Translations under genes and position numbers: made by a program
Part shown: positions 46,371 through 59,670 of the stretch, one piece after another
How the letters are laid out: each line of letters starts with the position of its first letter
How positions within the stretch are numbered: the first letter of the stretch is position 1
DNA from: Paractinoplanes toevensis
GTDB lineage: Bacteria > Actinomycetota > Actinomycetes > Mycobacteriales > Micromonosporaceae
Assembly (NCBI RefSeq): GCF_018332695.1
Contig: NZ_BOQN01000011.1
Span: 1 to 64,000, forward strand
Reading direction: 5' to 3'
Length of the DNA stretch: 64,000 bases
Notes under the pieces: generated by a model
Told to the model about the DNA's origin: nothing
Databases searched by the model: none
The model's input: the letters and a program-made list of their open reading frames with translations, nothing else

Positions 46371-46551
46371 TCAGCTGAGCCGGTCGGTGAATTCGGTGGT
46401 GGCCGCGATCAGGCGGGGGTGACGCCGGGCGCGAGCGAGCAGTGCCCCGCGGCCGAGACGATCGGGAAGGCGGCCTCGGGCCAGCGGGTGGCCAGATCGT
46501 AGGCCGTGATCGGTGGGCAGCACTGGTCGTACCGACCCTGGACGATGACGC
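46371..46551 (-). pseudogene. Truncated, frameshifted 3' copy of the proline iminopeptidase gene
   Basis: By hand alignment these 181 bases are about 85% identical to 58702-58883, the 3' end of the intact gene at the right edge of the island, with one single-base gap. The peptide reads VIVQGRYDQCCPPITAYDLA, then TRWPEAAFPIVSAAGHCSLA, and after the frameshift RLIAATTEFTDRLS ending in a stop at the same place. Similarity stops sharply near 46551, inside the gene, and at the stop codon. It has the same orientation as the intact gene. Confidence 0.85.
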
Positions 46552-46607
46552 ACCGTGCGGCCGCGCCGGCTTCGCCCTCCGGCGCTTACGGCAAAGGAAT
46601 GGCAGGG

Positions 46608-46623
46608 TGATAGGTTTCCACCG
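46608..46623 (+). promoter_or_regulatory. Extended -10 promoter for rmlC
   Basis: TGATAGGTT (46608-46616) is an extended -10, followed by six bases to the GTG at 46623, predicting a leaderless mRNA. No clear -35 is seen, which an extended -10 can tolerate. Confidence 0.5.
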
Positions 46624-47186
46624 TGATCATTCGACCGCTATCTATATCGGGCGCCTGGGAAATTATTCCTGAACTGCACGGCGATGCTCGCGGCGTCCTA
46701 CTCGAATGGTATCGGGCCGACCATCTCTCGGCGGTGACCGGTGAAACATTCGCGTTCGCGCAGGCGAATATTTCTGTTTCGGCCCATGGTGTGGTGCGTG
46801 GTATCCATTACGCGGATGTTCCGCCGGGGCAAGCGAAGTATGTCACCTGCGTCCAGGGGAGAGTGTTCGACGTGATTGTTGACCTTCGGGTCGGATCGGC
46901 GACCTTCGGTCGCTGGGATGCGGTTTACCTTGACGACAAGGACAGGCGTGCCGTGTTTCTCTCCGAAGGGCTGGGTCACGGTTTCTGCTCGGTTACTGAA
47001 AGCGCGACCGTGGCGTATCTTTGCTCCACCGCTTACGACCCGGCCCGAGAGCGGGAGGTACACCCGCTGGATCCTCGGTTGGCGATCACCTGGCCGGTCG
47101 ACACCCCCAGGCTCTCTGCGCGAGACAAGCATGCACCGACTTTGACCGACGCACTGGTGGCCGGACTGCTTCCAGCAGCCCATTAG
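46623..47186 (+). CDS. rmlC: dTDP-4-dehydrorhamnose 3,5-epimerase family protein
   Basis: 187 residues, the full RmlC length. The cupin carries the signature VVRGIHYADVPPGQAKYVTC with the catalytic histidine and lysine, followed by GRVFDVIVDLRVGSATFGRW, the HGFCSV strand and YLCSTAYDPARE. It would epimerise dTDP-4-keto-6-deoxyglucose at C3 and C5, or at one of them in deoxysugar pathways. Base composition is lower in GC than the neighbours (many A/T third positions), which suggests transfer. It stands apart from rmlABD and converges on the flavin oxidoreductase gene with a 12-base gap. Confidence 0.9.
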   Translation: MIIRPLSISGAWEIIPELHGDARGVLLEWYRADHLSAVTGETFAFAQANISVSAHGVVRGIHYADVPPGQAKYVTCVQGRVFDVIVDLRVGSATFGRWDAVYLDDKDRRAVFLSEGLGHGFCSVTESATVAYLCSTAYDPAREREVHPLDPRLAITWPVDTPRLSARDKHAPTLTDALVAGLLPAAH

Positions 47187-58300: not shown

Positions 58301-58507
58301 GTACAGCAGCAGGCAGCGTGAGCCGGCCGGCAGCGACGAACTCAAGGTTTCGGCCACGCTGTCGACCTCGGCGCGCAGCCTTAGGTAGGTCCACTCCGTG
58401 ACGGCGCCGTCCGCGTCGCCGGTATGCAGAAAACGGTAGGCCACCTGGTCCGGCCGATTCCGTGCGGCGAGATCCACCGCGTCCAGCACAGACTTCGCCC
58501 CCGCCAT
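52352..58507 (-). CDS. FAAL-ACP-KS-AT-ACP-C hybrid polyketide/peptide megasynthase
   Basis: 2051 residues. (1) Fatty acyl-AMP ligase, about 1-535: CLLLYPPGLDFVAGFLGCLR, FLQYTSGSTGTPKGVVVTHG, and SKTSSGKIQRRDT. (2) ACP1, about 555-625, with the unusual core QGLVSNQ (Ser586) instead of GLDSL. (3) Ketosynthase, about 643-1070: DTACSSS (Cys813), EAHGTGT and KTNIGH are intact. (4) Acyltransferase: VFPGQGGQYAGMARGLYRH, GHSMGEVAAAHVAG, and specificity motif GAGHS. (5) ACP2: FFELGGSSLMAAQ. (6) Condensation domain with HHVVTDG. No ketoreductase, dehydratase or thioesterase. The enzyme would load a fatty acid, extend it once, and have the C domain pass the beta-ketoacyl chain to an amine or hydroxyl. 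The overlapping reductase gene may act on it. Confidence 0.92.
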   Translation of the reverse strand: MAGAKSVLDAVDLAARNRPDQVAYRFLHTGDADGAVTEWTYLRLRAEVDSVAETLSSSLPAGSRCLLLYPPGLDFVAGFLGCLRAGMVAVPAYLPEAEQQWPRALRRSLAVVRDCDATAVLTGPEGDDLARRATELDPAFAPLRWLRAGEASGAGRAPEAGPAEVAFLQYTSGSTGTPKGVVVTHGNLAANLRAQHAAWQQDAARVVSWLPVYHDMGLVGGLLYSLWTGGTTTLMTPGAFVARPVRWLRALSQFGGTLSLAPNFGYELCLRKVAEDDLAGIDLSAWQMAGNGAEPVRASTLRGFATRFAAAGLDPAALQPCYGLAEATLLVTSASGGPAAGGATACGDPPPGTEVRIVDPDTATEVPAGEPGEIWIRGGGVAAGYWNRPDETEETFRARLADGDGPFLRTGDLGALRAGGLHILGRRKDLVIIDGVNHYPQDIELTAELGHSAVRPGCVAVFGVEHDGAERVVVVAEVTTAGPAVEAAVRDAIVHEHQIPVHEVVLLEPRTISKTSSGKIQRRDTAERYAAGTLRRHPVAPAGEPPTPPGPAETRAWLVAHLAGALDCPVAEVRPADPFQIQGLVSNQVVALAAELSSYTGRPFSVGDVYGHPTVDALVRYVCGTGAGDRAADRPAPADNPAGAVAIVGIGCRFPGAEGPAAFWKLLRDGVEAIRDVPGERWDVDEYYQAGGPAPGRMYTRRGGFLDDVAGFDEAFFGLSAAEARYLDPQQRLLLETAWSAMEDAGIDPAALAGTATGVYIGLTTGDYANLMAASGVNAGPYAATGNVACMAANRVSYTFDLRGPSLTVDTACSSSLVAVHQAVSAIRAGEIDAALVGGVNLSLSPTTTVALCQSGALSPDGRCYTFDARANGYVRGEGAGLVLLKPLARAVADGDRIYAVIRGSAVNQDGRSNGLTAPNPQAHARVIRRAYENSGMDPAGMRYVEAHGTGTALGDPIEASAVGMVLDGLLPPGERCAIGSVKTNIGHLESAAGVAGLIKVALALHHRQLPPSLHHEHTNPHIDLDALGLRIPGGLEPWPAGDGPRVAGVNSFGVGGTNAHIVLTDAPPVATGPADDETPQLLVLSGRTPAAVGDLARRLAEALPASGAALSTVCHTLGLRRAQHEHRWAVVARSTSEAAELLAEAPVTAVTGRVRPGADGRVVFVFPGQGGQYAGMARGLYRHDEHFRAAFDRCARHIRQHAGFDPVEQLYADGPESRIGEEAVVQPLLFAIQVALVAAWRERGVRPDAVVGHSMGEVAAAHVAGVLGLAEAAELTCVRAALLAEVRGLGAMAVIGLARERVLAELPGYAGRLHLAAANGPAMCVVSGDADAVADFRARAEALGVFARAVRASGAGHSPVVEPVAAEVAVRFARLAAKPAEIPLYSSVTGTWISGEEMTGAYWARNLRDPVLFHPAVEKLAADGYRVFLEMSPNPTLVVPVQQVLDEVPALADGRAIGSLRRDQDDRGSMLAAFGALYACGASVDLADVIPVDATVATLPSGPWQRRRHWFTGDAAADGAVVDVGTAVAEAFAAVLRTDRVPPDVGFFELGGSSLMAAQMLYDLRSRLDRDIPLRLLFDHPSVADFTVALLDRPETRAGSHVESLTRADGDVFPLTFNQERLLADGEVTTTIAQHLRLEGPLDVGALTEAVTRVVELHDGLRLEMTPDGRQRIAPSPVGPVLDVAEATEDTLVGLLLAAETGLAADGGRLFRFVLHRVGPELHVLSVVVHHVVTDGWSQGILFADLLTAYEARLAGVPDGLVAPPVRLVDFAAWQRRHYSGAELERTLAAWRERLAAAPAPDLPFVAGTRGPLTAAVLDRMLTAEEAGALERTAGTTATTMPMLVLTAFMLALHHASGQPRLSVPSSASGRDRPELDRVVGFLSTSHLVTADIAAPRTARGALAAVRDALLLADEEQGISMSQHAYLDGVPSDTLPYRVSLNYLPDVELPRTLGEAAVTMLPRMSEFGLTRDIVLLARREARALRLSFAYADGVVARDGLERLADDVVGMLHLLANDLDAPLPRTAAGLDAPLPRTAVDLDAAALRARES

Positions 58508-58701
58508 TCACGCCCCCGTGATCTCTTCAGCAGACGCAGTGTCTACATAAGAGGAGCGACCATACCAAGAGTGTCGGCGCTCACTCAACGGTTCGCGCCT
58601 ACCCGATAGCCAGGCTGAGGAGGCCGATCGACGTGGTCTTATCAGCCACGTACATTGCCATGTCTGCCCTGGTCAGCGGGCGTGGGCGACGCCCGCACCG
58701 A

Positions 58702-59670
58702 TCAGGTGAGCCGGTCGGCGAAATCGTTGGTGGCCGCGATCAGGCGGGCGGTGATGGCGGGCTCGAGTGAGGCGTGCCCGGCGGCCGGGACCATCTGGAA
58801 GTCGGCCTCCGGCCAGCGGGTCGCCAGGTCGTACGCCGTTATCGGTGGGCAGCACTGGTCGTAGCGGCCCTGGATGATGACGCCGGGGATGTGGCGGATG
58901 CGGTCGATGTCGTCCAGGAGCTGGGTCTCCGGGGTGAAGAACCCGCCGTTGACGGCGTAGTCGGCGAGGATCCGCGCAGCCGGCAGAACCGTCTCGTCGG
59001 CCGTCAAGGAGTCGATCAGGGCCGGGTCGGGGACCAGCGTGGACATGATGGCCTCCCAGCGCATCCAGGCGTCGGCGCACTTACGGGCCTCGTCGGGGTC
59101 GGGGCCGAGCAGCCGGCGGTGGTAGGCGGCCAGGATGTCGTCGCGCTCCGTGGGCGGGATGGGCTCGATGAAACGCTGCCACTCCTCGGGTTGCAGGCGA
59201 TCGAGACCGCGCTGGTAGACCCACTCCCGCTCGGCCGCCCGCACCAGGCAGATGCCGCGCAGGATCAGGCCCGTCACCGCGGCCGGGTGGGTCTCGGCAT
59301 AGGCCAGCGCGAGCGCCGACCCCCACGAACCGCCGAAGACCAGCCAGGCGGAGATGCCCAACCGGCGGCGGATCGTCTCGATGTCGGCGACCAGATGCCA
59401 GGTGGTGTTGTTGTGCAGGGAGCCCAGCGGGGTGCTGCGACCGGCGCCGCGCTGGTCGAACAGGACGATCCGGTAGCGGGCGGGATCGAAGAACCGCCGC
59501 ATGAAAGGCGCGAGGCCACCGCCGGGGCCGCCGTGCAGGAAGACCGCCGGGATGCCCGCCGGGTTGCCCACCTCCTCGACATACAGCGTGTGGCCGTCGC
59601 CGACGTCGATGCTGTGGGTCGCATAGGGCTCGACTTCGGGAAGGAGCTGGGTTTCGGGTGGCAGCACCAT
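58702..59670 (-). CDS. pip: Proline iminopeptidase
   Basis: 322 residues, the classic length. HGGPGGG oxyanion region, VLFDQRGAGRSTP, nucleophile elbow GGSWGS, aspartate in VIIQGRYDQCCPP and histidine in AAGHASLEP complete the triad. It removes N-terminal proline from peptides in the cytoplasm. A truncated copy of its last 181 bases lies 12 kb away at 46371, in the same orientation, so the gene marks the right boundary of the biosynthetic island. Confidence 0.93.
   Translation of the reverse strand: MVLPPETQLLPEVEPYATHSIDVGDGHTLYVEEVGNPAGIPAVFLHGGPGGGLAPFMRRFFDPARYRIVLFDQRGAGRSTPLGSLHNNTTWHLVADIETIRRRLGISAWLVFGGSWGSALALAYAETHPAAVTGLILRGICLVRAAEREWVYQRGLDRLQPEEWQRFIEPIPPTERDDILAAYHRRLLGPDPDEARKCADAWMRWEAIMSTLVPDPALIDSLTADETVLPAARILADYAVNGGFFTPETQLLDDIDRIRHIPGVIIQGRYDQCCPPITAYDLATRWPEADFQMVPAAGHASLEPAITARLIAATNDFADRLT

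What the first reader, a model, noticed from the sequence alone, without database searches (positions are those of the whole stretch)
46371..58883. A 12-kb biosynthetic island bounded by a direct duplication of the 3' end of pip
The last 181 bases of the proline iminopeptidase gene recur, truncated and with one frameshift, at the left edge in the same orientation (about 85% identity by hand alignment). Everything between belongs to one theme (deoxysugar plus acyl chain), and part of it has lower GC. A 3'-end duplication flanking a gene block is what insertion at a gene end, or recombination between tandem copies, would leave. No integrase is visible, so the mechanism is open.
Basis: partly seen in the sequence, partly recalled or inferred. 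Interest (0 to 1): 0.7.

Follow-up and report, generated by a model that had tools for sequence, protein, structure and literature searches.

The report
Acquired gene island with decayed scars
A block of about twelve thousand bases with sugar and fatty-chain genes was put into a bacterial chromosome next to a peptidase gene, leaving broken ends of two older genes behind; this is an ordinary kind of gene gain with unusually readable scars.

Summary
Window 46371-46551 is a decayed copy of the last 181 bases of pip (58702-58883): 87% identity, E 1e-56; no other place in the genome comes near among the 40 listed. At E 1e-60 the cluster's ADH is found in 2 of 67 genus genomes: the own one and G040 at 45%.

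'Island between two pip copies' is incomplete. In G064 the order is XRE-pip-HNH-GGDEF-conserved block. In the window it is XRE, pip 3' scar, cluster, 3' scar of that GGDEF gene (58587 to about 58701), intact pip, a second new block (GH31); synteny resumes at 65101. About 18.5 kb was remodelled. No integrase or transposase was among the families hit, and no repeat above chance lies at the junctions.

Best explanation: two successive block replacements at one variable spot, each leaving the 3' tip of the displaced gene. Tandem duplication plus two replacements is the main rival; trees do not decide. The cluster is composite: its PKS-ADH pair occurs elsewhere without rhamnose genes. Real, but ordinary in kind.

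The parts
45799..46341 (+). XRE-family HTH plus cupin regulator, native left neighbour
   Evidence: Pfam HTH_3, Cupin_2; 98% identical and next to pip in G064 and G020
46371..46551 (-). decayed 3' remnant of pip (scar 1), one-base deletion
   Evidence: 87% to 58702-58883, E 1e-56; changes at all codon positions; sits where intact pip lies in G064 and G020
46623..47186 (+). RmlC-like dTDP-sugar epimerase, low GC3
   Evidence: PF00908 3e-58; TIGR01221 149 bits, just under the 155.75 cut-off; GC3 0.64
47199..48347 (-). Old-Yellow-Enzyme-family oxidoreductase, low GC3
   Evidence: PF00724; other matches at E 1e-30 in 67 genus genomes reach 36% identity at most; GC3 0.75
48431..49300 (-). RmlA glucose-1-phosphate thymidylyltransferase
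   Evidence: TIGR01207 above cut-off
49349..50326 (+). RmlB dTDP-glucose 4,6-dehydratase
   Evidence: TIGR01181 above cut-off; a second match at 56% elsewhere in the genome
50323..51171 (+). RmlD dTDP-4-dehydrorhamnose reductase
   Evidence: TIGR01214 above cut-off
51189..52352 (-). MDR/ADH-type reductase paired with the PKS
   Evidence: weak PF00107 and TIGR01751, both below cut-off; 73% and 68% homologues beside the PKS in P. flavus and R. arisaemae
52352..58507 (-). FAAL-ACP-KS-AT-ACP-condensation megasynthase
   Evidence: Pfam AMP-binding, PP-binding (two stretches), ketoacyl-synt, Acyl_transf_1, Condensation; fatty acyl-AMP ligase models
58587..58701 (-). decayed 3' tip of a GGDEF diguanylate cyclase gene (scar 2)
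   Evidence: The one match listed in G064 and in G020 is the 3' end of the syntenic GGDEF gene, E 3.7e-16 and 2.0e-12 (40 scored of 72 and of 52 candidates). The BLAST match covers 58587-58676; 58677-58701 aligns only after a 25-base gap. Family by Pfam in G064
58702..59670 (-). intact pip (prolyl aminopeptidase)
   Evidence: TIGR01249 373.9 bits, above cut-off
59671..59748 (-). 5' flank of pip ending in about the last 40 bases of the HNH/DUF222 gene
   Evidence: blastn match to G064 ends at 59748, inside the 3' end of the HNH gene
59749..64000 (.). second block absent from G064 at this place (GH31 plus ricin-lectin gene 60614-63955); goes on to contig position 65100
   Evidence: synteny with G064 resumes at 65101; Pfam

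Best explanation
An accessory spot in the chromosome was remodelled by two successive block replacements. Ancestral order, kept in G064: XRE, pip, HNH, GGDEF, conserved block. First, DNA carrying the rml/OYE/PKS-ADH cluster replaced the 5' part of pip and the HNH gene, leaving the pip 3' tip (shown: the junctions; inferred: the order and that it was one event). Later, DNA carrying an intact pip and the GH31 block replaced most of GGDEF, leaving the GGDEF 3' tip and restoring pip (inferred). In each case one end would be joined by homology (the GGDEF gene or the conserved block on the right) and the other without, as in homology-facilitated illegitimate recombination (inferred). The cluster probably makes an acyl product: FAAL loads a fatty acid, KS-AT extends it, the condensation domain releases it, reductases modify it, and a dTDP-deoxysugar may be added by a transferase encoded elsewhere (inferred from domain content only).
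For: Uninterrupted locus in G064 and G020. Five junctions mapped against G064 and G020: 46551, 58586, 58701, 59748, 65100. HNH lies between pip and GGDEF in G064 and G020. The GGDEF scar's one listed match in G064 and in G020 is the syntenic gene. Both scars lie at the left edge of a block and are 3' tips of minus-strand genes. No shared repeat above chance at the five junctions. In G018, too, the stretch between pip and GGDEF differs. Published precedent: orphan 3' ends left by serial displacement in Vibrio T6SS loci, with this mechanism proposed (PMC5361080, passages).
Against: No donor with pip-GH31 or cluster-GGDEF was found: the GH31 homologues of five genus genomes have no pip, GGDEF or next-door methyltransferase match in the 20-kb stretches read. 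The pip scar is not closest to the G064 pip, as a native remnant should be: 82.8% against 87.2% to intact pip and 86.1% to G018; scar as sister of G064 is rejected by the AU test (0.023), though not by KH (0.060) or SH (0.144), and scar+intact pip+G064 as a group is not rejected (AU 0.19). Third-position differences put scar, intact pip, G018 and G064 almost equally far apart (10-15 of 60), so a duplication in this lineage is not excluded. The search for another HNH-GGDEF copy in the own genome is weak: it scored 40 of 1327 candidates and did not list the known scar itself.
Confidence: 0.5

Rival explanations
1. Tandem duplication of pip-HNH-GGDEF tip (junction at about 58701), then the cluster replaced the inside of the first copy and GH31 replaced HNH-GGDEF of the second.
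For: The join of GGDEF tip and pip stop codon at about 58701 is what a tandem duplication of a 2.5-kb segment would leave. Scar and intact pip are no further apart at third positions (11/60) than the orthologues are (10-15 of 60); scar+intact pip is among the four topologies of equal best likelihood.
Against: Needs three events instead of two. No second pip copy at 71% or more was listed in any of the six relatives that have one (E 1e-60). Scar plus intact pip as sisters is not preferred over scar plus G018.
Confidence: 0.32
2. Single-crossover (Campbell) integration of a circular molecule carrying pip and the cluster, followed by decay of the first pip and later replacement by GH31.
For: Gives direct pip copies around an insert, as seen.
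Against: Does not by itself explain the GGDEF tip beside pip or the loss of HNH-GGDEF; no replication, transfer or recombinase family was hit in the block.
Confidence: 0.1
3. Integrase-mediated insertion at the 3' end of pip (att duplication).
For: A 3'-end duplication flanks the block.
Against: The repeat is long and diverged, the left copy ends inside pip, a second gene scar separates cluster and right copy, and no integrase or junction repeat above chance was found (one search lists only 12-18-base pairs inside single regions).
Confidence: 0.03
4. Assembly artefact joining unrelated contigs.
For: Draft genome of 287 contigs; reads could not be checked.
Against: The two pip copies differ by 13%, too much for a repeat collapse; left and right flanks match one G064 contig in order.
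Confidence: 0.04

Closest known systems
Accessory biosynthetic islands found at synteny breaks in actinomycetes (Synteruptor, PMC11195616; abstract and outline seen)
   Same: A metabolite cluster present in one species at a place where relatives are collinear.
   Different: Here decayed 3' tips of two displaced neighbours mark the edges, and pip is present again.
Sequential displacement arrays at T6SS and Rhs loci (PMC5361080; passages seen)
   Same: An incoming block replaces a gene and leaves an orphan 3' part; homology-facilitated illegitimate recombination is the proposed route there.
   Different: The scars here are decayed tips of a peptidase and a diguanylate cyclase gene, with no sign of a kept function, and no donor form was found.
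PKS-ADH pair of Phytohabitans flavus and Rhizohabitans arisaemae
   Same: Adjacent ADH (73%, 68%) and a synthase alignable over most of its length (53% in R. arisaemae; 69% and 50% in two pieces in P. flavus).
   Different: No rml, OYE or pip match (E 1e-10, over 100 residues) in the roughly 10-kb flanks there; the P. flavus synthase is split over two reading frames in that record.

Membership tests
Genomic island (accessory block absent from close relatives) | Uninterrupted locus in relatives | tested here: met
   G064 and G020
Genomic island (accessory block absent from close relatives) | Restricted distribution | tested here: met
   ADH at E 1e-60 in 2 of 67 genus genomes: own, and G040 at 45%
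Genomic island (accessory block absent from close relatives) | Deviating composition | tested here: inconclusive
   Clear only for RmlC and OYE (GC3 0.64, 0.75); the rest 0.87-0.91
Integrase-type integrative element | Integrase or excisionase gene | tested here: not met
   None among the Pfam/NCBIfam hits of the ten main genes and five small ORFs; other small ORFs not scanned
Integrase-type integrative element | Short near-identical att repeats at both ends | tested here: not met
   181 bases at 87%, with a GGDEF scar between cluster and right copy; no repeat above chance at the junctions
Homology-facilitated illegitimate recombination product | One junction without homology between incoming and resident DNA | tested here: inconclusive
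   Junction flanks share nothing above chance with each other, but without a donor the incoming sequence cannot be compared
Homology-facilitated illegitimate recombination product | Other junction by homology, with an identified donor | tested here: inconclusive
   No donor found in the genus genomes examined
Tandem duplication | Two copies in a relative or two full copies here | tested here: not met
   One copy at 71% or more in each of the six relatives that have pip (E 1e-60)

The most novel reading that the evidence does not exclude
The spot between XRE-cupin and the IclR-containing conserved block is a replacement hotspot in this genus where incoming blocks serially displace residents and leave datable 3' scars: a displacement record like that of Rhs/T6SS loci, but at a biosynthetic locus, with the peptidase lost in one step and regained in the next.
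Probability: 0.35. Interest if true: 0.45.

Novelty: new member of a known kind. Interest (0 to 1): 0.3.

Why it matters
Biosynthetic clusters spread between actinomycetes, but the route is seldom visible when no integrase is left. Here scars of two displaced genes help to order the events and put them near the age of the split from the closest sampled relative. If the serial-replacement reading holds, it is a worked example of cluster gain without mobile-element machinery.

Tried and rejected
Att-site integration: rejected on repeat length, divergence, the GGDEF scar and the lack of an integrase hit.

Foreign origin of intact pip from its distance to G064 (86.7% against 92.2-93.7% for flanks): left open. 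Fourfold-site divergence of pip (43/163) equals that of the neighbours XRE (30/113) and MT (46/154), but is above FAA1 (30/153), FAA2 (31/183) and the amidohydrolase (35/238); much of the excess is at first and second codon positions, so weak constraint explains part of it.

Dating by fourfold sites of the scar: that row used the wrong reading frame and is not used; one search gives the codon positions.

Tree of the scar: unresolved among intact pip, G018 and neither. A donor tract in the conserved block at 65101: identity to G064 is lower near the junction (86.0% in the first 250 bases) but G064-G018 is also low there (80.4%), so uninformative. GH31 as a unit linked with pip: not seen in five relatives.

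Paper searches for this island type or chemistry gave nothing specific in the listings; that does not show that nothing is in print.
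Full report
Observation. The repeat is real. Bases 46371-46551 match 58702-58883, the last 181 bases of pip, at 87% in the same orientation; a whole-genome DNA search gives E 9.9e-57, and the next of 40 listed places has E 2.7e-4 (40 scored of 188 candidates). A protein search finds the same fragment, residues 264-308 at 78%. The left copy is cut off at 46551 and has a one-base deletion. Its differences from intact pip fall on all codon positions (5/59, 7/61, 11/60), against 2/59, 1/61, 12/60 between intact pip and the G018 pip, so it looks like a decaying relic.

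Uninterrupted locus. Of 67 genus genomes, own included, 23 have a pip match at E 1e-60 or better; six relatives match at 71% or more: G018, G064, G020, G065, G034, G003. In G064 and G020 the XRE-cupin gene (98% identical) lies directly beside pip, with the methyltransferase beyond, and no cluster. In G018 pip lies next to the FAA hydrolase genes, and neither methyltransferase nor XRE is on the 19-kb contig; that genome has no XRE match at E 1e-40. In the 20-kb stretches read from G065, G034 and G003, pip is not beside these genes (G065 has a 38% XRE-like match about 6 kb away). XRE has a match in 58 of 67 genomes. I read 20-kb neighbourhoods of nine more of these (L073-L081): they have XRE and methyltransferase matches but no pip. 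The remaining ones were not read.

A wider rearrangement. Comparison with G064 (window orientation) shows: 40806-44618 collinear at 92%; 44906-46551 collinear at 83%, ending inside pip; 46552-58586 absent; 58600-58676 matching G064 beyond pip and HNH; 58692-59748 matching pip again at 85%; 59749-65100 absent; 65101-68614 collinear at 91%, with more collinear pieces beyond. The 58587-58701 stretch is the 3' tip of a GGDEF gene; Pfam gives this family and the neighbouring DUF222/HNH gene in G064. Searching whole genomes with it lists one match each in G064 and G020, both the syntenic gene (E 3.7e-16, 2.0e-12), and in G018 one match at another place (E 7.5e-9) although the syntenic GGDEF gene exists there (40 candidates scored of 52 to 72 per genome). 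A search of the own genome with the G064 HNH-GGDEF stretch lists the 89-base flank at 65101 and 66-80% matches, mostly to the GGDEF domain; it scored only 40 of 1327 candidates and did not list the known scar, so it does not prove that no other copy exists. In G018 GGDEF sits beside the conserved block; no HNH match lies on either side of a contig break between pip and GGDEF, and other genes lie there. So the spot varies there too.

Mechanism. Each scar is the 3' tip of a minus-strand gene at the left edge of a new block. Two replacements, each joined by homology on the right and without homology on the left, explain this with the fewest events. Tandem duplication followed by two replacements explains it with three. 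Trees do not choose: scar with intact pip, scar with G018, and intact pip with G018 have equal likelihood. Scar with G064 is rejected by AU (0.023) but not by KH (0.060) or SH (0.144); this is against a simple native scar. Third-position differences among the four are 10 to 15 of 60, so the scar is roughly as old as the split from G064 (inference). The five junctions share at most a 9-base word, which random pairs of 80-base stretches of this region reach or exceed in 327 of 2000 draws. Homology-facilitated illegitimate recombination is described in PMC3240628 (start of abstract in the search listing), and serial displacement with orphan 3' parts in PMC5361080 (passages).

The cluster. RmlA, RmlB and RmlD are above their curated cut-offs, RmlC just below. 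The large gene is FAAL-ACP-KS-AT-ACP-condensation. At E 1e-60 the ADH is found in 2 of 67 genus genomes, own and G040 at 45%, and at E 1e-90 in 3 of 397 order genomes, own included (four candidates scored per genome). The scan of named genomes gave nine loci; in the two best, Phytohabitans flavus and Rhizohabitans arisaemae, the PKS-ADH pair is conserved without rml or OYE matches, and the ten ORFs tried at each locus gave no rml family. In five of the other seven loci PKS-like matches lie near a 40-48% ADH, in line with a PKS-linked role; a sixth has one at the edge of its stretch, and the seventh, a 4-kb contig, has none. A second RmlB match at 56% elsewhere in the genome suggests that the rml set here is an extra one. 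No glycosyltransferase family was hit in the cluster. The product is therefore a guess: an acyl chain, extended once, released by the condensation domain, perhaps with a deoxysugar.

Limits. The genus was not named by any search; Actinoplanes is my guess from genome size, GC and relatives. Reads could not be inspected.

Noticed in passing
window 59671-60613: A 943-base gap of lower GC (0.634) between pip and GH31; five ORFs in or around it gave no Pfam hit.
   Followed up: partly
L072:1-136 and L114:6527-6626: In G018 the contigs break at this very spot, in a GC-rich imperfect repeat shared by both contig ends (93.6% over 78 bases).
   Followed up: partly
L100:3743-9732: The Phytohabitans flavus synthase is split over two reading frames near 8.0 kb: a frameshift in the gene or in the record.
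   Followed up: no
L079:11902-12867: The methyltransferase next to XRE matches in three separate pieces in G031, so it may be broken there.
   Followed up: no
window 60614-63955: GH31 enzyme with CBM6/35-like and ricin-type lectin domains; homologues of 79-81% identity in four other genus genomes and 67% in a fifth at E 1e-200.
   Followed up: partly
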